DNA from: Candidatus Aminicenantota bacterium
GTDB lineage: Bacteria; Acidobacteriota; Aminicenantia; Aminicenantales; UBA4085
Assembly: GCA_003154255.1 (NCBI GenBank)
Contig: PMCY01000318.1
Coordinates: forward strand, 1,866-12,053
Length of the DNA stretch: 10,188 nt
Direction: 5' to 3'
Positions 791 to 10,188 of this stretch are shown here, in pieces. The first letter of the stretch is position 1. Each line of letters begins with the position of its first letter. The translations under genes and the position numbers were made by a program. The notes beneath the pieces were generated by a model that was not told the origin of the DNA, searched no databases, and saw only the letters and a program-made list of their open reading frames with translations.

Positions 791-823
791 AAAAAAAGGG
801 GCGGCACCTTGCGATGCCGCCCC
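791..823 (-). terminator. Intrinsic terminator of the porin-cytochrome operon
   Basis: On the minus strand a perfect 9-bp stem, GGGGCGGCA (815-823) and TGCCGCCCC (798-806), encloses an 8-base loop and is followed at once by seven T (791-797). It starts 27 bases after the stop codon of the large decahaem cytochrome. This is a textbook rho-independent terminator oriented to stop transcription from the cytochrome operon before the sensor gene. Confidence 0.9.
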
Positions 824-850: not shown

Positions 851-3013
851 TCAGCGCCAGGTGTACTTGGAGACGTCCCCGCCCAGGCTCTGGATGGAAT
901 CGACCAGAAGCTGGGCCACGTAGCGGGCGTTGTGGATGAAGCCGTGGGGCTCCTTCCTGCTCAACTGGAAGTTGAACGTCGCCTTCAGCGCCGCGGCGTT
1001 GAGCTTGTAACCGTTGGCCGAGGTCATCTCGCTAGCCTCCAGGACGCCGTTGTTGTTGGTGTCCTTAAACCAATAGGGGTAGGTGTTGCCGTCATAGAGC
1101 GCCCGGCTCCCCTGGTTGGCCAGCGTGTAAGCCTTAATCTGGGCGTAGAGGGCATTCTCCAGCCCCAGAATCTCGTCTTTGAGCGATTCCCGGGTGTTGC
1201 CGTTGCCGTTATAATCGGGAATATTGCCCGGCCGGATCTGTTCGAAATCGAATTTCTCCGGGTCGGCGCCCTGGAACGTCTGGGAGATGTCGTTGCCGTG
1301 GCAGGGCACGCAATTTTCCTTCATCGGCTCGGCCACGTTGTGCGTCCGCATCGTCCAATTGTGTTTCTCGGCGACGACCGCTGTGCTCATGTGGCATTCG
1401 ACACAGGTATTGAAGCGCCCGCCGTGGTTGGCGAAGGGCTGACGGCCGATGTAGCTTTTGCCCGGGAATTCGTAGCCGACCTGGACTTCGGTTCCCAGGA
1501 ATGTGGCCCCGGCGGCGAAATAGTGGACATTTTTGAAGCTGAAGGTGCCCGAAGGGTTGGCGGCGATCGCGGCGTCCACTGAGGATTTCGATTCGCGTCC
1601 CTGATGGCAGGTGATGCACAGGTTGCTGTTGTCCCCCAGCGTGACGCTTAGGCCCGAGGGAAACTTGACGAGGGGCGCCTGGCGTAGGGCCGGGGGCGCC
1701 GTATGGCAGGTGGTGCAAAGCATGCCGTTGGAAAGGGGCTCGGCCTGGTTGGTGCCGTTGGCCAGGTAATATGCCAGACCGGTGGCCGAATGGCAGCGGG
1801 CGCAGCCGGCGTCGACCTGGCCGCCCGAGTCCCAATGCCGCCACGGCTGGCCGGACCCGTCGAAGTGGCCTTCATCGGTCCGGCTCATGGCGCTTAGGTC
1901 GGTCTTCTGGATCAGCTTCGCGTTAAGGTCCTCGATCGAATCGTACATCAGCTCGATCAGGTACTTGCCGTTATGGGCAAAGCCGTTGGGGTCCTTGGTC
2001 GCGACCTGGTAGTTGTAGCAGGCTTTCGTCAGGCGGTTGGTGAAGCTGGCGTAACTATTGGAGGAATCCGCCTCATTGGAATCGACGACGCCGTTGCCGT
2101 TGAGGTCGTTGAACCAGTAGGGATTTGTCGCGCCGTCATAGGCGATGGGCTTGTTGATGACCGACCGGGCGTAGTTCTGGATCGTCGCCAGGAGCTTGGC
2201 CTTGATGCTGTCGATCACGTAGAACATGCCTTTGGTCAGGTCGCCGCTGCCGTCGTAATCGACCTGGGAGCCGACGAAGCGGATATCCTTGAAATCATTG
2301 ACCCCGGTGTGGCAGGTGTTGCACTTGGTGATGTCGACCTGCAGGGAGTGGGGGTTGTGGCAGTTGTTGCAGGCGTTATAGCCGGTGATATGGGAAAAGC
2401 GGGCGTCGTAGGATTTGCCGCTATACTCGTAGCCGCTCTTGGCGAAAGTGCCGAACTGGGTCGCGGCCGCGGCGTAATAATGGATGTTGTTGAATTTAAT
2501 CTTGGTGCTGGGCGTGTCGTCGTTGGGCGCGGCGGCGGAGGCGATGTTGGAGTCGACCGTGGCCTTGGAGGCCCGGCCCTGGTGGCATTCCATGCAGAGG
2601 CCCTCGGGGCCCAAGTTGTTGACCACGTACCCGGAGGGGAACAGGACCGAGGAGTTCACCCGCAGGACGCCCTTTCTGGGGTCGGTATGGCAGACCAGGC
2701 ATTCGACCGTCGTGCCGATGGGAGCGGCCTTGTCCACCTGTCTGGCGGGCGTCCCGTCGGCGCCCAGAAAGTCCAGGAAGCCGGGGGTGCTGTGACACTT
2801 GGCGCAGGTCGTGGGGATCTCGGCCGGCGAGGCCGTATTCCAGTGCTTGAACGGCTCATCCGTCTTGTCGGCATGGCCGGACGTCTTCCACAGCTTGGTA
2901 GCCACGGCCGACTTGGTGTTGGTGCCGGCATCGACCTTGGCGCTGGGGAAAACCAGAACCAGGCCGATGAGGGCCGGCAGGGCCAGGAAGCCGATCATGT
3001 TTCGTTTTTTCAT
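851..3013 (-). CDS. Secreted decahaem c-type cytochrome with two tandem five-haem halves (candidate extracellular terminal reductase)
   Basis: This 720-residue protein has a Sec signal peptide (MKKRN, then a hydrophobic run, likely cut after VDA at 29) with no lipobox Cys. CxxCH motifs start at residues 70, 105, 140, 215, 231, 404, 433, 466, 537 and 568. Residues about 45-365 and 382-712 are a clear internal repeat: GHADKTDEPFKHW/GHFDGSGQPWRHW, CMECHQGRASK/CITCHQGRESK, NPYWFNDLNGNG/YPYWFKDTNNNG, DPNGFAHNGKY/EPHGFIHNARY. Each half has two acidic EF-hand-like loops (D252 and D303; D600 and D651) that may bind calcium. The family resembles the large envelope-associated polyhaem cytochromes of metal-reducing bacteria. 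It follows the barrel gene by 25 bp, with AGGAGG before the ATG. Inference: it is the outer-face electron acceptor of the conduit, like MtrC/OmcA in role but not in sequence. Its surface location is not shown by the sequence. Confidence 0.9.
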   Translation of the reverse strand: MKKRNMIGFLALPALIGLVLVFPSAKVDAGTNTKSAVATKLWKTSGHADKTDEPFKHWNTASPAEIPTTCAKCHSTPGFLDFLGADGTPARQVDKAAPIGTTVECLVCHTDPRKGVLRVNSSVLFPSGYVVNNLGPEGLCMECHQGRASKATVDSNIASAAAPNDDTPSTKIKFNNIHYYAAAATQFGTFAKSGYEYSGKSYDARFSHITGYNACNNCHNPHSLQVDITKCNTCHTGVNDFKDIRFVGSQVDYDGSGDLTKGMFYVIDSIKAKLLATIQNYARSVINKPIAYDGATNPYWFNDLNGNGVVDSNEADSSNSYASFTNRLTKACYNYQVATKDPNGFAHNGKYLIELMYDSIEDLNAKLIQKTDLSAMSRTDEGHFDGSGQPWRHWDSGGQVDAGCARCHSATGLAYYLANGTNQAEPLSNGMLCTTCHTAPPALRQAPLVKFPSGLSVTLGDNSNLCITCHQGRESKSSVDAAIAANPSGTFSFKNVHYFAAGATFLGTEVQVGYEFPGKSYIGRQPFANHGGRFNTCVECHMSTAVVAEKHNWTMRTHNVAEPMKENCVPCHGNDISQTFQGADPEKFDFEQIRPGNIPDYNGNGNTRESLKDEILGLENALYAQIKAYTLANQGSRALYDGNTYPYWFKDTNNNGVLEASEMTSANGYKLNAAALKATFNFQLSRKEPHGFIHNARYVAQLLVDSIQSLGGDVSKYTWR

Positions 3014-3038
3014 CTATGCATCCTCCTGAGTTCGTTCC

Positions 3039-4946
3039 TCAATCCCAGCGGTAACCGAAGGTGAACTCGAAAATATTGGCGTTGTAGTTGTTGGCTCCGC
3101 CGGAGAGGCTTTCCTTGAAGTGGGCGTACCGATAGGCGATCTGGGCGGCGAAACCGCCGCTCAACAGGTACTCGACATAGGCCCGCAGCATGGTCCGGTC
3201 GATGGGCCAGTACCCCGAATTCGTGTAGCTGTTGGCGTACAGGCCGACCTTCCAGTCGGGGGACAGGGTCCAGGCCGCGGTGGCGTCGAGCAGGGTGGAA
3301 TTTCCAAGATAGGCGATGACCCAGGAGAACGACCCGGGCGCTCCGGCCCAGGATGCCGGATAGGTGATCAAACGCGTGCTGTCCTGTTTGGCGTGGATAT
3401 AGGCATAGCCAAGGCTGAAATTAATCTTGTCGCCGTGGTAGCCCAGGCGCAGGTTGACCTGGTCATTGCTGCTCTTCCAAAGGTCGTTGTAGTTGTCATC
3501 TCCATAATTGATGAAAAAGTTGAGCCCGCCGGGAACGTCGCTCTTGATCCGGGTCATGAGATAGCTGGCCGAGAGGTTGAATTTGTCCAGCTGCCAGCGG
3601 ACCGTCGTCCGCAAGCGGTCGAAGCTCGTCGGAGAGATCAGAGTGAAAGGGTTCTCGTTCCGGCCGTGCTGGTAGTCGGCGGTGACATGCAGGTTCTTGA
3701 GGTCCCATTTAAGGTTGCCGAAGAGGCCGTTGCGTGTCGTCTGATCCGCGCCCGTAGCCGTCTCCAGGTTGTTCAGCTTGCGCTGCTCGTTGCGGTATCC
3801 CAGGGTCAGAACAAATTTCGGAGTGAATTCGTATTGCAGGCCGGCTTCGACGCCCCGAGTCTTGAATCCGAAGTTCTGGAGCTCGGTGGCGCCCGTCTGC
3901 ATGAACGAACCGCTTTGGTCGAACGTGTCGTATCGAAAGGCTCCGACGACGGCCAGCTTGCTGAAGATGAGGTAGCTCAGGTCGAAGTCGTAAAGATCCA
4001 TCTTCCGGGCAAAATTGCCCTGGCCGGTCAGCTGGTACTGGAAGCCGGCCGATAGGTAGTCCACCCCGGCCGCCTCCTCCGTATAAGAGATGTTCGTTTT
4101 CTGGTTGCTCAGCCGAGCGGCGCCTTTCAATAAAAGGTTGTCAAACGGACGCGCGGTGAACCGGAAGGTGCTGACGTTGGTCTTGAATTCATAGGGCAGG
4201 TTCTGGAGAAAAGAGTCGAGGTCGGCCACTCCCCCCGTGCTGTCGGCGAAGGCCGGCAGGTAGGACATATTGTCACTGGTGTACTTCTGGTAGCGTTGCT
4301 CGAAAAGCAGGGAATAGCGGGGCACATGCAGGTCGAGGCCGAAACCCGTGTCGGTCATTTTTTCGGACACGGGCTGCGCGAGCGTATAGTCGGCCCGGTT
4401 GGACAAATAGGCCGTCGTATTCTGGCCCTCTTTCGTATAGTGGTCGAAATTCAAGAAGATGTTGACATTGGGGCTGAGGGTCACGTTGAAATCGCCGTTG
4501 TCGTGGATCCGCGTGAAATTGAGGCGGCGGGCGTCGTAGAACACGCCCCCGCCGATCGTCTGCATGTCGGCATAGAAATAGTCGGACTTGCGGCGGTCGA
4601 AGCGGAACTTGTAGGTCCCGAACTTCTGGATGTTCAGGCTGAAGGACTCGAAGGGGTCGCCGCCGAGGTTGACGACGTTCAAATCGATCCGGTCGAAGTA
4701 TTTTTTCAAGGCCTCGCTGGCCTGATAGGTCAAGCTGAGGTTGAACAGCCGCATTCCGCTGGTCAGATTGATATGTTCCTTGTATTTGTTGTAGCCGGGG
4801 GCGTTTTCATTCGTATCCACGGCCCGGTAGCCGAACTGGAAGCTCCCGCTGAAGTTCGGGTCCTTGGCTTGGGCGGCTAGGGGAATAGCCCGGGCCAGGA
4901 CGAGGACGAGGAACGCGGCCACGATGATCGTTTGGATTCTTCGCAT
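3039..4946 (-). CDS. MtrB/PioB-type outer-membrane beta-barrel of a porin-cytochrome conduit
   Basis: The protein has 635 residues. The frame is open upstream to 5159, inside the preceding gene, but the ATG at 4946 has GAGGAG a few bases ahead and starts a proper signal peptide (MRRIQTIIVAAFLVLVLARA, likely cut after AAQA at 27). The mature part is a long run of alternating-hydrophobic strands rich in Tyr, Phe and Asn (for example VLTLGYRNEQRKL, NFSLGYAYIHAK, AQIAYRYAHFK) and ends FEFTFGYRWD, typical of large barrels. Length matches the MtrB/PioB family. I find no Cys, so it lacks the N-terminal CxxC of Shewanella MtrB. It starts 14 bp after an MtrA-type decahaem gene and precedes a secreted decahaem gene. 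Known role of the family: a sheath that holds the periplasmic decahaem protein across the outer membrane. The family call rests on length, barrel pattern and context, because barrel sequences diverge strongly. Confidence 0.85.
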   Translation of the reverse strand: MRRIQTIIVAAFLVLVLARAIPLAAQAKDPNFSGSFQFGYRAVDTNENAPGYNKYKEHINLTSGMRLFNLSLTYQASEALKKYFDRIDLNVVNLGGDPFESFSLNIQKFGTYKFRFDRRKSDYFYADMQTIGGGVFYDARRLNFTRIHDNGDFNVTLSPNVNIFLNFDHYTKEGQNTTAYLSNRADYTLAQPVSEKMTDTGFGLDLHVPRYSLLFEQRYQKYTSDNMSYLPAFADSTGGVADLDSFLQNLPYEFKTNVSTFRFTARPFDNLLLKGAARLSNQKTNISYTEEAAGVDYLSAGFQYQLTGQGNFARKMDLYDFDLSYLIFSKLAVVGAFRYDTFDQSGSFMQTGATELQNFGFKTRGVEAGLQYEFTPKFVLTLGYRNEQRKLNNLETATGADQTTRNGLFGNLKWDLKNLHVTADYQHGRNENPFTLISPTSFDRLRTTVRWQLDKFNLSASYLMTRIKSDVPGGLNFFINYGDDNYNDLWKSSNDQVNLRLGYHGDKINFSLGYAYIHAKQDSTRLITYPASWAGAPGSFSWVIAYLGNSTLLDATAAWTLSPDWKVGLYANSYTNSGYWPIDRTMLRAYVEYLLSGGFAAQIAYRYAHFKESLSGGANNYNANIFEFTFGYRWD

Positions 4947-4960
4947 CGCTTCTCTCCTCA

Positions 4961-5833
4961 TTACCGGATGAAGATATTGCTCAGGTTCGAGCCGTGCATC
5001 TTGGTATGGCACGACGTGCAATTGGTGGTCTGGGAATTGAAGGAGCTGTGCCACTGGGGCAACTGTATGGTGTGGCAACTGAAGCACAAATCGGCCACAC
5101 TGGGAGTCGAGAGCATATGCCTGTTGGGCGTGCCGTGGGGATCGTGGCAGGTGACGCACCCCTCGACGCGGGACGAACCGTGTTCAAAGAGAAAGGGTCC
5201 GCCCTTATCCGTATGGCATTTCAGGCAGAGCTCCTGCTTGAATCCGCCCAAACGGCCGAGCGTCGAGGGCTCGTGCGGATTGTGGCAGGTCGTGCATTCG
5301 AGAACGCCTTCCTGCAAATGGTGCCGCTCGTTCAGGCTGAATTTGGCGTAAACGTCCTGGTGGCAGGTGATGCAGGCCTTCGTCCCTCCGGACTTGGCCC
5401 CGTCGTGGGGTTTGGAGGCATGGACGGAGTGGCAGGTGGTGCAGTCCAGGGAGGCTTTGCCGTGCGGACCCGCCAGGAATTGGGCGTTCGATGCGGTGTG
5501 GCAGGTCAGGCAGACCTTGTTTTTCCTGGCCGCCGAGTCGGCCGCCTTGAAGGCCAGGATTCCGGCCCCGCCGCCGTCCTTGAGGTGAGCCTCAGAGCCG
5601 GCGTGGCAGGATGTGCAGGAAGCCGCGCCGATAGCCGAATGGGGCGTACGCCCGAAGGCCTTGGCCACGTCCTCATGGCAGGCGCCGCAGGTATCGACAT
5701 CCTTGGCCGTCTGGGGTGCCTGGGGCCGCGACCCGGCCGCGGCCAAAGAGCCGGCGACGCACAGGACCAGTCCCAGCAACGCCAACAACCGGACGGATGA
5801 GACGAATGGCTTGGGTTGTTTGTTCGCTGACAA
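4961..5833 (-). CDS. Periplasmic decahaem cytochrome c, MtrA/PioA/DmsE family
   Basis: I place the start at TTG 5833, giving 290 residues. AAGGAGG lies 6 bases ahead of it, and the next residues form a normal signal peptide (SANKQPKPFVSSVRLLALLG, likely cut near LAAAG at 34). The in-frame ATG at 5944 would add 37 residues of non-signal sequence. Ten CxxCH motifs start at residues 49, 73, 108, 131, 154, 180, 203, 226, 250 and 272, with many spare His for bis-His ligation. The C-terminus CTSCHTKMHGSNLSN matches the conserved CHxxxHGSN ending of the DmsE/MtrA/PioA family, and the length fits. Members are haem wires that insert into an MtrB-type barrel, and here the barrel gene follows 14 bp downstream. 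The gap of 107 bp from the receiver gene shows no convincing promoter, so co-transcription with the receiver is likely. Direction of electron flow (out as in Mtr, in as in Pio) cannot be told from sequence. Confidence 0.92.
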   Translation of the reverse strand: MSANKQPKPFVSSVRLLALLGLVLCVAGSLAAAGSRPQAPQTAKDVDTCGACHEDVAKAFGRTPHSAIGAASCTSCHAGSEAHLKDGGGAGILAFKAADSAARKNKVCLTCHTASNAQFLAGPHGKASLDCTTCHSVHASKPHDGAKSGGTKACITCHQDVYAKFSLNERHHLQEGVLECTTCHNPHEPSTLGRLGGFKQELCLKCHTDKGGPFLFEHGSSRVEGCVTCHDPHGTPNRHMLSTPSVADLCFSCHTIQLPQWHSSFNSQTTNCTSCHTKMHGSNLSNIFIR

Positions 5834-5846
5834 TGGAAACCTCCTT
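5827..5846 (-). promoter_or_regulatory. Ribosome-binding site that fixes a TTG start for the decahaem gene
   Basis: The minus strand reads AAGGAGG, then TTTCCA, then TTG TCA GCG. This is the strongest Shine-Dalgarno match of the operon and its spacing suits the TTG at 5833. No ATG or GTG in frame is better placed. The rare start codon may lower translation of this gene. Confidence 0.75.
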
Positions 5847-5940
5847 GAACTGTTTGCCGAGAAAATATCGAATACCACGGATGCGACCTGAGGCCCGGCT
5901 TCGGCTGGGAATGAAAGGTCGCCGCCGCACTTCTTCGCAT

Positions 5941-6321
5941 TCATGCTTGGCTCTCCGCCGGGGCCGCGGCCAAGGCGGCCTTGACCGCCGCGCGGATCTC
6001 CTGCGAATCGAAAGGTTTTTCCAGGATCCGCTCGGCCTTGAAACCTCCCAGCCGCCGCTCGGCCTGGTCCCCCGGAACGGCGGTGAGGATGATGATCTTG
6101 GCCCCCTTCTGAAGCCGGACGAACTCGGTGAAACGGGCCTTGGCCTGATCACCGCAGACTTCAAGATCGGCCAGGATCAATTCATAGCTGCGGGTATTAG
6201 CCAGCCGGGCGGCTTCTTCGACAGTGGCCGCTAAATCGACCTCATAGCCTTCTTGGAGGAAGATCTGGTTCAGAGACCAACGGATGAGCTTTTCATCATC
6301 GAGGATAAGTATGCGCGGCAT
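5941..6321 (-). CDS. Stand-alone response-regulator receiver domain
   Basis: The 126-residue protein is a single receiver domain. It shows the acidic pair D8-D9 (ILILDDEK), the phospho-acceptor D52 (LILADLEV), the conserved T80 (IIILTAV) and K102-P103 (LEKPFD). The DDEKLIRWSL opening is typical of receivers of NtrC-type regulators, but no AAA+ or DNA-binding domain follows; only a short Ala-rich tail remains. It is therefore a CheY/Spo0F-like phosphate carrier, or acts through an unseen partner. It is the first gene of the minus-strand unit, 107 bp ahead of the decahaem gene. No histidine kinase is certain in the window; the haem sensor at 1-692 is the obvious candidate partner, which is inference. 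The ATG lacks a good Shine-Dalgarno sequence (only TAGG at a distance), so translation may be weak. Confidence 0.9.
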   Translation of the reverse strand: MPRILILDDEKLIRWSLNQIFLQEGYEVDLAATVEEAARLANTRSYELILADLEVCGDQAKARFTEFVRLQKGAKIIILTAVPGDQAERRLGGFKAERILEKPFDSQEIRAAVKAALAAAPAESQA

Positions 6322-6718: not shown

Positions 6719-8092
6719 ATGAAGCGCATCTTTAAATTCCTGTCGTCGATCAAGCTGGCCATCATCCTCCTGATCATTCTGGCCGCCGCCTCGATTCTGG
6801 GCACTCTCATACCGCAGGGACGGAGCCTGGAGGAATATACGGCCCGCTATGGAATGCTCTCGGGGGCCCTGATCAAGCTTCAACTCACGACCCTTTACCA
6901 CTCGGTCTGGTACCTGGCCCTGCTGTTCTTTTTCGCCCTGAACATCATCGTCTGTACGCTGACCCGGCTGTCCGCCAAGCTGAACCGGGCCTCCCGGCCG
7001 AAGGTGGAAAGCGAAGCGAAGGCCCTGCAGGCCCTCAAAAACAAGGACCGTATTAAAAGGAACGCGCCGCTCCAGGCCGCGCAGGCCGAAACGGTTGCCC
7101 GCCTCAAAGCTTCCCGCTATAAGATCAGGACTTCGGCCGCCGGAAACCGCGTCTCGCTCCTGGCCCGCAAGCGCATCGCCGGAATCTTCGGCTCGGATGT
7201 CGTCCACGTCGGGCTTCTGGTCATTCTCTCCGGCGGAGTCATCAGCGGCCTGACCAGCGTCCGCCAGAACCTGGAGATGCGGGAAGGCCAGGTCGTCTCC
7301 ATCCCGGCCACGGATTTCAGCCTGCGCCTGGATAAGTTCACGACATTGTATTATCCCGACGGCAGCGTCAAGACCTGGATCAGCGACCTGACCGTTCTGG
7401 AGGGCGACCGGACCGTCCTGACCCGCAAGGTCGAGGTCAACCGGCCCCTCAACTATAAGGGATTCAACTTCTACCAGACGAGCTATGGCTATAACTGGGA
7501 CTCCCCCGCCGTCGAGATCGGAGCCAAAAAGAAATCGGACCCGGCCTATGCGAAGAAGGTCAAGGTCAAAGTCGGGGAACGCGCCCTCCTCGACGACAAG
7601 GACCAGCTGACCGTTTCCGTCGTCCGCTTTCTGCCCGATTTCGTCCTGGGCGAAGGGAACCAGCCCGAAACGAGATCGCTCCAGCCCAACAATCCCGCCG
7701 CCCTCGTCGAGGGGTTCCGCGGCGGCGAGAAGATCATCACGGGCTGGGTTTTCGCCAATTACCCCGATTGGGACCAGATGCACTCGGCCAACGCCAAGGA
7801 CAAAGCGGCCCCGACCGACCTGGTCTTCCAGCTGAAGAGCTTTGAAGCCGGCCAGTTCTCGGTGCTCGAAGCGGCCAAGGATCCGGGCGTTCCGCTGATC
7901 TGGATAGGCTGCGTCCTGGTCATGGCCGGCTTCGGCCTGGCCTTCTACTGGCCGACCTGGGAAATCAAGGCCGTCTTCGAGGAAACACTGGGCAAAACCG
8001 ACATCGTTCTGGGCGGACTGGCCGCCAAGAGCCGCGAGTCATTCGCCGTCGAATTCGAGGCCGTCGCGGCCGATTTGAGGAGATCGAAATGA
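6719..8092 (+). CDS. resB: ResB/Ccs1, System II cytochrome c biogenesis protein
   Basis: ResB forms with CcsA the complex that carries haem across the inner membrane and attaches it to CxxCH of apocytochromes. I chose the ATG at 6719 (457 residues), which opens with MKRIFKFLSSIKLAIILLII, the standard ResB start; the preceding GGAAAGAG is a modest ribosome-binding site. Membrane segments: about 13-31, 63-83, 160-179 and 390-410, with a large periplasmic loop of roughly 180-388 between the third and fourth, as in the family. Recognisable motifs: LGTLIPQG (27-34), the third-helix His in DVVHVGLLVILSGG (H163), and NRPLNYKGFNFYQTSYG (241-257). A cytosolic tail of about 45 residues follows the last helix. 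Length is normal for bacterial ResB. The stop overlaps the ccsA start. A separate thiol-reducing partner (CcdA, ResA/CcsX) is not in the window. Confidence 0.93.
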   Translation: MKRIFKFLSSIKLAIILLIILAAASILGTLIPQGRSLEEYTARYGMLSGALIKLQLTTLYHSVWYLALLFFFALNIIVCTLTRLSAKLNRASRPKVESEAKALQALKNKDRIKRNAPLQAAQAETVARLKASRYKIRTSAAGNRVSLLARKRIAGIFGSDVVHVGLLVILSGGVISGLTSVRQNLEMREGQVVSIPATDFSLRLDKFTTLYYPDGSVKTWISDLTVLEGDRTVLTRKVEVNRPLNYKGFNFYQTSYGYNWDSPAVEIGAKKKSDPAYAKKVKVKVGERALLDDKDQLTVSVVRFLPDFVLGEGNQPETRSLQPNNPAALVEGFRGGEKIITGWVFANYPDWDQMHSANAKDKAAPTDLVFQLKSFEAGQFSVLEAAKDPGVPLIWIGCVLVMAGFGLAFYWPTWEIKAVFEETLGKTDIVLGGLAAKSRESFAVEFEAVAADLRRSK

Positions 8093-8877
8093 GCGAATCC
8101 ACGCTGTTCGGACTGGCGTTCATTCTTTTTTGTCTGGCCGCGCTCGTCTATCTGGCGTTTCAATTCTCGAAGAAGAGCTCCCTGGCGAATGTCGGTTTCT
8201 GGATCGCCGCGGCGGGCTTGACCAGCCATACCGCCGCCCTGATCTTCCGGACGATCAGCAGCGGTCACGCCCCGTTTACCAACATGTTCGAGTCGATGTC
8301 GTTCCTGGCCTGGGCCATCCTCTTGGCCTTTCTGATCATTGACCGAAAATACAAGATCCCCAGGATCGGGGCTTACATCCTGCTCATCGTCATCGGCATC
8401 GTGGCCCTGGCTTCTACCCCGCTCATGCCCAAAGAGGCCACGCCGCTCGTTCCGGCCCTGCAGAGCTATTGGCTCTGGTTGCACGTCTCGGTCACCATGC
8501 TCGGCGAGGCCTTCTTCGCCGTGGCCTTCATCGCCAGCATCATGTATCTCACGGCCAAGGAGCCGGAGAAGAAGGACAAGATGGACTCCGTCGGCTATCG
8601 CTGCGTGGCCGTCGGCTTCCCCCTTTTCACCCTGGGCGGGCTGATCTTCGGCATGGTCTGGGCCTACAAGGCCTGGGGGACCTACTGGAGCTGGGATCCC
8701 AAGGAAGTCTGGAGCCTCATCACCTGGATCGTCTTCGCCCTCTATCTCCACACCCGCATTGTCATGGGCTGGAAAGGAAAGCGCTCGGCCATCATCGCCC
8801 TGATCGGCTTCCTGGCCGCCCTGTTCACCTATTTCGGCGTGAATTATCTTCTCGCCGGCCTGCACAGCTACGCTTGA
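8089..8877 (+). CDS. ccsA: CcsA/ResC-type haem lyase, System II cytochrome c biogenesis
   Basis: This 262-residue polytopic protein has about eight membrane segments. It carries the tryptophan-rich WWD haem-handling motif at 196-213 (WGTYWSWDPKEVWSLITW), the diagnostic feature of CcsA/CcmC/CcmF proteins. Family His are visible at H47 (TSHTAAL), H132 (WLWLHVSV), H221 (LYLHTR) and H259 (GLHSYA), placed as expected for haem ligands. The segment APFTNMFESMSFLAW (61-75) is also typical. The ATG overlaps the resB stop as ATGA, and GAGGAG lies a few bases ahead, so the two are translationally coupled. Known role: with ResB it forms the System II synthase that attaches haem on the periplasmic side. 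In this locus the clients are presumably the multihaem proteins on both sides. Names vary (ccsA, ccsB, resC). Confidence 0.94.
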   Translation: MSESTLFGLAFILFCLAALVYLAFQFSKKSSLANVGFWIAAAGLTSHTAALIFRTISSGHAPFTNMFESMSFLAWAILLAFLIIDRKYKIPRIGAYILLIVIGIVALASTPLMPKEATPLVPALQSYWLWLHVSVTMLGEAFFAVAFIASIMYLTAKEPEKKDKMDSVGYRCVAVGFPLFTLGGLIFGMVWAYKAWGTYWSWDPKEVWSLITWIVFALYLHTRIVMGWKGKRSAIIALIGFLAALFTYFGVNYLLAGLHSYA

Positions 8878-8896: not shown

Positions 8897-10188
8897 ATGA
8901 CCGGGACCGCCGCCGAACCCGTTCCCGTCCCCGCGGATGCGGGCGCGCCCCCGCCGCCGGAGCCGAAGAAGAAAAAGAAGAAGAAGATCCTGCGGATCGT
9001 CCTGATCGCCGCCGTGGCCTTGGTTATCGTCTTCGTCGCCGCGATCGAAATGACCTCGACGTCTTCGTTCTGCTCGTCCTGCCATTATATGAAATCCTTC
9101 TACCAGAGCTGGAAGACGTCGTCGCACGGCAAGATCGAGTGCAAGGTGTGCCATTATCCGCCCGGCATCCGCAACACCATCCGGGCCAAAATCGAGGGCC
9201 TGGTCATGGTCGGTCGCTATTGGACCAAGCTCTACCTGAAATCCAAGCCCTGGGCCGAGATCCAGGACGAGAGCTGCCTGCAAAAGGGCTGCCACGACCG
9301 CCGCCTCCTCGAAGGCCAGGTCAAGTTCAAGACCGTCGTCTTCGACCACAAGGCCCATTTCGCGGACCTCAAGCGCGGCAAGCAGCTTCGCTGCACGACG
9401 TGCCATTCGCAGATGGTCCAGGGCGAACATATCACCGTGACCGAGGCCGCCTGCTTCATCTGCCACTTCAAGAAGACCGAGAACTCGCCCCAGGTCAGCG
9501 CCTGCGCCAACTGCCATAAGAAAGAAACCTTGACCGCTCCCCAGTCCCGCTACAACCACACCGTCGTCTTCGAACGGGATTTTAAATGCGACAAGTGCCA
9601 CAGCCAGGTCGTGGTGGGCGACGGGGCCGTGCCCCGGGAGAACTGCTTCAAATGCCACTTCGAAAAGGAGCGGCTGGATAAATACGGCGATACCACGGTC
9701 ATCCACGACATGCACATCGCCAGGAACAAGATCGAGTGCACCCAATGCCATTTGGCCATCCAGCATAAGATCGTCAAGGACATCGAGACGATCGCCGACT
9801 GCCGCGCCTGCCACACCGGGTCCCACCAGGCCCAGAAGATACTTTTCACCGGTACGGGCGGCCGGGGTGTCGATCACCCCATGCCCAACGTCATGCTGGA
9901 GAAGGGCCTGAGCTGCAAGGGCTGCCATATGTTCCATGAGGAAACCGGCGGACTGCAGGTCCGGAGCCAGACGGCCGTCTCGCGCGAACAGGCTTGCGAG
10001 TCCTGCCACGGCAAGGGATTCGGGGACATCCTCAAGAACTGGGAGAGTTCGACCCGCCAGAAGCTTCTGGCCATCAACGGCATCTATCAAGCCGCTCTCC
10101 AGGAAATCCGCAAGGCCGCCCCGGCCCGGCGGGCCGCGGCCGAAAAGCTCCTCCAGGACGCGGCCTTCAACATCGACGTGGTGGACCG
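8897..10188 (+). CDS. NapC/NirT-like membrane-anchored multihaem cytochrome c (3' end outside window)
   Basis: I translated this frame by hand: 430 residues to the right edge with no stop. The ATG at 8897 follows ccsA by 19 bp; AAGAAAGGA lies just ahead. Order: a cytosolic tail rich in Pro and Ala, seven Lys in a row (24-30), a single membrane anchor (about 31-50), then FCSSCHYMKSFYQSW (58-72), which resembles the first haem site of NapC/NirT/NrfH quinol dehydrogenases. Haem motifs start at residues 59, 82, 127, 166, 186, 203, 231, 250, 281, 302, 340 and 367. The third is CLQKGCH, a CX4CH form known from cytochromes c3. Twelve haems exceed the four or five of NapC/NirT. The stretch 375-430 is helical, Ala-rich and haem-free. 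Inference: it oxidises menaquinol and passes electrons to the periplasmic decahaem protein. It could equally serve another reductase beyond the edge. Confidence 0.88.
   Translation, partial: MTGTAAEPVPVPADAGAPPPPEPKKKKKKKILRIVLIAAVALVIVFVAAIEMTSTSSFCSSCHYMKSFYQSWKTSSHGKIECKVCHYPPGIRNTIRAKIEGLVMVGRYWTKLYLKSKPWAEIQDESCLQKGCHDRRLLEGQVKFKTVVFDHKAHFADLKRGKQLRCTTCHSQMVQGEHITVTEAACFICHFKKTENSPQVSACANCHKKETLTAPQSRYNHTVVFERDFKCDKCHSQVVVGDGAVPRENCFKCHFEKERLDKYGDTTVIHDMHIARNKIECTQCHLAIQHKIVKDIETIADCRACHTGSHQAQKILFTGTGGRGVDHPMPNVMLEKGLSCKGCHMFHEETGGLQVRSQTAVSREQACESCHGKGFGDILKNWESSTRQKLLAINGIYQAALQEIRKAAPARRAAAEKLLQDAAFNIDVVD

What the first reader, a model, noticed from the sequence alone, without database searches (positions are those of the whole stretch)
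851..6321. Complete candidate porin-cytochrome conduit for electron transfer across the outer membrane
The sequence shows, in tight minus-strand order, an MtrA/PioA/DmsE-type decahaem protein, an MtrB/PioB-type barrel (14 bp gap) and a large secreted decahaem protein (25 bp gap), ended by a strong terminator. From known Mtr and Pio systems this trio is the minimal set for moving electrons across the outer membrane. The outer component here is not an MtrC/OmcA homologue by sequence and has no lipobox, so the conduit seems to be a variant type.
Basis: partly seen in the sequence, partly recalled or inferred. Interest (0 to 1): 0.7.

Follow-up and report, generated by a model that had tools for sequence, protein, structure and literature searches.

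The report
Variant outer-membrane electron conduit, Aminicenantes
Three neighbouring genes of an uncultured Aminicenantes-like bacterium probably build a wire that carries respiratory electrons through the outer membrane, pairing a known kind of membrane wire with a surface cytochrome whose relatives also occur in bacteria that probably have only one membrane.

The parts
4961..5833 (-). MtrA-like periplasmic decahaem cytochrome (10 CXXCH, signal sequence, TTG start behind GGAGG)
   Evidence: phmmer to 6r2q_A E 8.6e-28; TIGR03508 172 bits, NF041028 154.8 bits; ten non-motif His conserved in at least 12 of 13 homologues, window included
3039..4946 (-). MtrB-fold outer-membrane beta-barrel, about 26 strands, signal sequence, no cysteine
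851..3013 (-). exported decahaem outer cytochrome of two pentahaem repeats, no lipobox
   Evidence: 10 CXXCH; halves 34.6% identical over 356 columns, E 8e-62; 10 motif His and 10 further His invariant in 32 of 32
1874..2914 (-). N-terminal pentahaem repeat of the outer cytochrome (residues 34-380)
   Evidence: EF-hand-like loops at residues 252 and 303
854..1873 (-). C-terminal pentahaem repeat of the outer cytochrome (residues 381-720)
   Evidence: EF-hand-like loops at residues 600 and 651
798..823 (-). intrinsic-terminator-like site closing the trio
   Evidence: 11-pair stem, T7 tail
5941..6321 (-). stand-alone response-regulator receiver upstream of the MtrA-like gene
   Evidence: PF00072 E 7e-15; homologue just upstream of the MtrA-like gene in L033, L034, L035, L038, L045
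3..692 (-). N-terminal part of a membrane sensor with one CXXCH and a weak HAMP start, beyond the terminator
   Evidence: HAMP E 0.0048, below cut-off; one CXXCH; homologues next to the outer cytochrome in L038, L046, L047, that of L047 with HAMP, HisKA and HATPase
6719..8092 (+). ResB-like cytochrome c biogenesis protein (system II), divergent
   Evidence: PF05140 E 2.3e-77
8089..8877 (+). CcsA/CcsB-type haem lyase subunit
   Evidence: TIGR03144 258 bits, over its 187.6 cut-off
8897..10188 (+). NapC/NrfH-type inner-membrane multihaem cytochrome, 11 CXXCH plus one CX4CH inside the window; runs on past its end
   Evidence: PF03264 E 1.1e-11, haem count; homologous single ORFs with 17 CXXCH in L033, L038, L040

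Best explanation
The trio encodes an Mtr/Pio-type trans-outer-membrane electron conduit of an Aminicenantes-type bacterium. The barrel spans the outer membrane, the decahaem MtrA homologue is threaded into it as an insulated haem wire, and the two-repeat decahaem cytochrome caps it on the outer face and passes electrons to (most likely) or from extracellular partners such as iron oxides, shuttles or other cells. A divergently encoded NapC/NrfH-type multihaem cytochrome probably feeds it from the quinol pool, ResB/CcsA attaches the many haems, and a haem-c sensor with receivers probably sets expression. The cap is not an MtrC: it is a different family whose homologues in Chloroflexota and Actinomycetota are mostly lipoprotein-like and have no detected MtrAB, so the conduit looks like an MtrAB wire fitted with an exchanged surface cytochrome. 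Shown by computation: gene content and order, homology of the MtrA-like protein, MtrB fold of the barrel model, haem sites, conservation of the trio, family difference of the cap. Inferred: assembly, surface position, electron direction and acceptor.
Against: The barrel alone has no profile hit, and generic barrel models ring in its family more often than MtrB/PioB (PF10677 in 27 of 32). The MtrA-like protein stays below both curated cut-offs (172 of 192.2 and 154.8 of 325 bits). No complex was modelled. The cap has no lipid anchor, so how it stays on the surface is unknown. One relative (G015, L044) has MtrA-barrel without a cap, and one locus (L071) has a truncated cap without MtrAB. Counting histidines does not prove bis-His haems: OcwA has enough of them and still has open haems (PMC6703420 passage), and in 53 cytochromes the tenth further His is kept in only 19. 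Two Planctomycetota and two Myxococcota, diderms by general knowledge, have the cap but no barrel match in their genomes, so a diderm envelope alone does not predict the pairing.
Confidence: 0.78

Rival explanations
1. The MtrA-barrel pair is a conduit, but the large decahaem protein is a periplasmic or freely secreted electron carrier or a reductase of small molecules, not a cap docked on the barrel.
Against: Ten further invariant His for ten haems in 32 of 32 leave no obvious open haem, though OcwA shows that this is no proof; gene adjacency to the barrel in 16 of 17 loci; 23 of 27 homologues in Chloroflexota and Actinomycetota carry lipoprotein-type signals.
Confidence: 0.2
2. The conduit works mainly inward, as in PioAB/MtoAB, taking electrons from Fe(II) or from partner cells.
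For: MtrA/MtrB-type conduits are known in both directions (Pio and Mto, general knowledge); nothing in the sequence fixes direction.
Against: Clusters for Fe(II) oxidation are described as lacking the outer cytochrome gene (PMC4245776 passage), which is present here; a NapC/NrfH-type quinol-side cytochrome is usual for outward flow (general knowledge); Guaymas Basin Aminicenantes genomes were read as fermentative (PMC5569505 abstract passage).
Confidence: 0.15
3. The genes are neighbours only by shared regulation of haem proteins and form no conduit.
For: No complex was predicted; the region is rich in cytochrome genes of other kinds.
Against: A barrel of this family lies beside an MtrA homologue in each locus whose contig does not end inside the barrel; the gap here is 14 bp and the barrel model has the MtrB fold.
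Confidence: 0.04

Closest known systems
MtrCAB of Shewanella (PDB 6r2q)
   Same: MtrA homologue by sequence; barrel of MtrB fold; ten haems inside and ten outside; tight cluster
   Different: outer cytochrome not of the MtrC/OmcA family and without lipobox; order here is A-B-outer, not C-A-B; barrel 12% identical to MtrB in the structural alignment and free of cysteine
PioAB / MtoAB
   Same: MtrA-type decahaem with an MtrB-type barrel
   Different: an outer decahaem gene is present here; clusters for Fe(II) oxidation are described as lacking one (PMC4245776 passage)
GSU2203-GSU2204 of Geobacter (NCBIfam NF041028, NF041027)
   Same: NF041028 matches the MtrA-like protein (154.8 bits) and NF041027 matches 21 of 32 barrel-family members; a table lists both genes as up-regulated with hematite and magnetite (PMC4070692 passage)
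   Different: 154.8 bits is below the 325 cut-off; the window's barrel has no CXXCH and no profile hit of its own, and is followed by the decahaem cap
OcwA of Thermincola (6i5b) and an 11-haem S-layer cytochrome of Carboxydothermus (6qvm, probably OmhA)
   Different: ten haems in two repeats; conserved His enough for ten bis-His haems, whereas OcwA has two open haems and one His-Met (PMC6703420 passage); coupled to a porin conduit here
Pcc conduits of Geobacter (OmbB-OmaB-OmcB)
   Same: porin plus inner and outer cytochrome in one cluster
   Different: inner cytochrome octahaem and phylogenetically unrelated to Mtr (PMC4245776 passages); here decahaem and an MtrA homologue

Membership tests
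MtrA/DmsE decahaem cytochromes | ten CXXCH in a protein of about 260-330 residues | tested here: met
   10 CXXCH in 290 residues
MtrA/DmsE decahaem cytochromes | sequence homology to MtrA over the haem domain | tested here: met
   6r2q_A, residues 43-283, E 8.6e-28
TIGR03508 DmsE family as curated | score over the curated cut-off | tested here: not met
   172.0 against 192.2 bits; so MtrA homologue, not filed as a DmsE-family member
MtrB/PioB barrels | PF11854 or TIGR03509 match of the protein itself | tested here: not met
   no hit; 5 of 32 family members hit each at E up to 0.1
MtrB/PioB barrels | MtrB fold, about 26 strands | tested here: met
MtrB/PioB barrels | gene adjacent to an MtrA homologue | tested here: met
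   14 bp gap; same in relatives
MtrB/PioB barrels | profile-profile match to barrels over the TIGR03509 cut-off | tested here: met
   hhalign against 15 such barrels from the same phylum: probability 98.4, 529 columns, 16% identity; no barrel family outside MtrB was run as a control
MtrC/OmcA outer decahaems | TIGR03507 match | tested here: not met
   no hit of the window protein at E 0.1; 1 of 32 family members, E 0.0015; PF22113 29.3 bits, below its cut-off of 30; PF22113 is unspecific, as the MtrA-like protein passes it (46.1 bits)
MtrC/OmcA outer decahaems | lipoprotein signal | tested here: not met
   no Cys before the first haem motif; 0 of 20 Aminicenantes-type homologues, window included, by a strict rule
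NrfA/OcwA-type cytochromes | fold: pentahaem core and C-terminal helix bundle | tested here: inconclusive
Working trans-membrane conduit | MtrA homologue inserted in the barrel and electron transfer across a membrane | not testable with these tools
   no complex prediction or assay available

The most novel reading that the evidence does not exclude
The outer cytochrome is an exchangeable surface module that works independently of envelope type: in Chloroflexota and Actinomycetota it is a lipoprotein on the surface of the only membrane, without MtrAB, while in Aminicenantes it lacks the lipid anchor and was fixed once, in one clade, behind an MtrAB wire. MtrAB conduits would then be general sockets that accept unrelated surface cytochromes, and searches that demand MtrC overlook them.
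Probability: 0.5. Interest if true: 0.7.

Novelty: new variant of a known kind. Interest (0 to 1): 0.58.

Why it matters
A large survey of Mtr conduits kept only clusters that hold mtrC, mtrA and mtrB (PMC8805035 passage), so conduits with another outer cytochrome escape it. If this trio works, extracellular respiration becomes predictable in an uncultured lineage that one study read as fermentative (PMC5569505 abstract passage), and the question whether MtrAB needs an MtrC-type partner becomes directly testable with a naturally different partner. The same surface family in Chloroflexota and Actinomycetota would link electron transfer in one-membrane and two-membrane bacteria.

Tried and rejected
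Direct sequence search of the outer cytochrome and of the barrel against solved structures gave nothing useful, nor did profiles (outer cytochrome: best NrfA E 0.021; barrel). Placing the outer cytochrome in the NrfA family by sequence was rejected: profile probabilities to NrfA (38.6 and 8.8) are below those to MtrA (95) and to most other multihaem sets tried, so CXXCH-rich profiles match each other unspecifically. Foldseek alone found no fold for it. The search for related loci with the single barrel sequence found no relative in genome contigs; the outer-cytochrome alignment did. PF11854 in the own genome found nothing. The genome-wide motif count (56 matches against 73 for its reversed control) was my mistake: the pattern spelt CXCH, not CXXCH; it is not used. 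I considered that a nonahaem near the cytochrome in Chloroflexota is an MtrA without porin: profile probability 99.3 over 218 columns but different haem spacing; left open. An 8-9-haem ORF near the cap occurs in several Aminicenantes loci; the one tested, L051, is HAO-like. Empty barrel searches in the 36 other genomes had no positive inside the call; the same queries rang, but the completeness of those 36 genomes is not told.

Full report
What is in the window. The window is bases 1866-12053 of a 14,674-base contig in a draft genome of 377 contigs. Named relatives of the barrel are mostly Candidatus Aminicenantes (P0016, P0030, P0040, P0059; one, P0116, is filed as Pseudomonadota), and the nearest named outer cytochromes are Aminicenantes, so the host is inferred to be of that lineage; the genome itself is unnamed. 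On the minus strand lie, in order, a receiver-only response regulator (5941-6321), an MtrA-like decahaem cytochrome (4961-5833), a beta-barrel (3039-4946) and a large decahaem cytochrome (851-3013), ended by a terminator-like site (798-823). Divergently on the plus strand lie ResB (6719-8092), CcsA/CcsB (8089-8877) and a NapC/NrfH-type multihaem cytochrome (8897 to the window end). Beyond the terminator lies a sensor with a single CXXCH (3-692).

The periplasmic cytochrome. Ten CXXCH in 290 residues. phmmer finds chain A of 6r2q, the Mtr complex, at E 8.6e-28 over residues 43-283; the molecule label of that chain reads oddly, cystathionine beta-synthase, and that it is MtrA is my knowledge of the entry. 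TIGR03508 gives 172 bits against a cut-off of 192.2, NF041028 154.8 against 325: a clear homologue, outside both curated families. Ten histidines outside the haem motifs are conserved in at least 12 of 13 homologues, the window included, matching ten bis-His haems.

Conservation of the trio. Among 59 related genomes (own included), the barrel family occurs in 14 and the outer cytochrome in 14, 13 being the same. MtrA-barrel-cytochrome lie in a row on one contig in 10 of the 14 barrel genomes (in one, G005, only the start of the cytochrome fits on the contig); in three others (G006, G033, G041) a contig ends inside the cluster; in one (G015, with the most distant full-length barrel) MtrA-barrel stands without the cytochrome. 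The one genome with the cytochrome but no barrel (G009) holds it at the very start of a contig. The two other genomes of the window's genus have neither. These loci overlap in part with the 59 genomes and are not independent. Within 199 genomes drawn from the window's phylum (unnamed; Acidobacteriota in GTDB by my knowledge) the cytochrome is found in 5, one of them by a weak partial match, the four strong ones all in the window's class, while TIGR03509 barrels occur in 50, 21 of them over the cut-off.

The cytochrome outside Aminicenantes. The other 36 loci are 25 Chloroflexota, 4 Actinomycetota, 2 Planctomycetota, 2 Myxococcota, 1 Thermodesulfobacteriota and 2 unnamed. Of the 25 with at least 3 kb upstream (18, 3, 2, 0, 0 and 2), none has the barrel or an MtrA homologue at the thresholds used. 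None of the 36 whole genomes gives a TIGR03509 or barrel-family match; those calls held no positive of their own, but the same queries ring. By a strict lipobox rule 19 of 23 Chloroflexota and 4 of 4 Actinomycetota proteins are lipoprotein-like, 2 of 2 unnamed, 0 of 2 Planctomycetota, 0 of 2 Myxococcota and 0 of 20 Aminicenantes type, the window included. Eight of these 20 have a cysteine near the end of the signal segment that the strict rule rejects (seen), so lipidation is not excluded for those; the window protein has none. Actinomycetota are monoderm by general knowledge, and a Chloroflexota isolate is described as presumably monoderm (PMC5808234 passages). In a tree of 53 cytochromes the 20 Aminicenantes-type rows form one clade (100/99), with an anammox planctomycete as neighbour under midpoint rooting. 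The simplest account is one acquisition or founding event in the lineage, tied to MtrAB.

The electron path proposed. Quinol, then the NapC/NrfH-type cytochrome, which carries 17 CXXCH in one ORF in relatives (L033, L038, L040) and might itself bridge much of the periplasm (inference), then the MtrA homologue inside the barrel, then the decahaem cap, then an outside acceptor. ResB/CcsA would attach haem. The single-haem sensor and the NtrC-type regulator seen next to the cap in L047 suggest redox control. Direction is not fixed by sequence.

What is known. The Mtr survey required mtrC and reported 5 hits among the Acidobacteriia (PMC8805035 passages). Desulfobacterota with mtrC away from mtrAB are described (PMC12133095 passages). 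FeGenie names Aminicenantes once, for cyc2 or sulfocyanin homologues (PMC7005843 passage). OcwA and OmhA relatives are known from monoderms and diderms, including a cluster from Acidobacteria, and the Carboxydothermus cytochromes OmhA, SmhA and SmhB were described as not associated with porin complexes (PMC7829351 passages). Searches for Aminicenantes or Aminicenantia with multihaem, porin or Mtr terms listed nine entries, seven different papers; I saw passages of PMC7005843, PMC13212322 and PMC5569505, none of which describes this conduit; the other four I saw as listings. Papers of subscription journals and preprints were not searched.

Verdict. A well-supported candidate conduit, new in the combination of its parts rather than in principle.

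Noticed in passing
8897-10188 and beyond (L001:10708-12306 and 11777-12607): The NapC-type gene is one ORF with 17 CXXCH in relatives (L033, L038, L040) but in the own contig it falls into two frames with 11 and 5 CXXCH around the window end: a frameshift or an assembly error.
   Followed up: partly
3-692 (L001:1457-2596): The sensor ORF of the own contig shows no HisKA or HATPase domain, although the homologue L047:2299-3783 does: again a possible break or draft error.
   Followed up: partly
L001:12945-14117 and 14110-14673: Next along the contig lie a cytochrome b (PF00033) and a 5-haem fragment with a weak PF02335/NrfA-type match (E 2.9e-5, just under the cut-off); possibly a second respiratory module.
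   Followed up: partly
L051:14777-16054; similar ORFs in L050, L052, L053, L059, L060, L063, L067, L071: Several Aminicenantes loci carry an 8-9-haem ORF near the cap; the one tested (L051) matches hydroxylamine oxidoreductase-type structures, E down to 3.9e-29.
   Followed up: partly
Maybe a porin-free version of the same chain.
   Followed up: partly
P0161, P0167: Homologues of 1067 and 1027 residues look like three pentahaem repeats, and P0161 starts with a lipobox-like segment: the repeat unit seems to be multiplied.
   Followed up: no
G001, G002: The two other genomes of the window's genus lack both barrel and outer cytochrome, while G001 has a strong NrfA-type match: the conduit is patchy even within the genus.
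   Followed up: no
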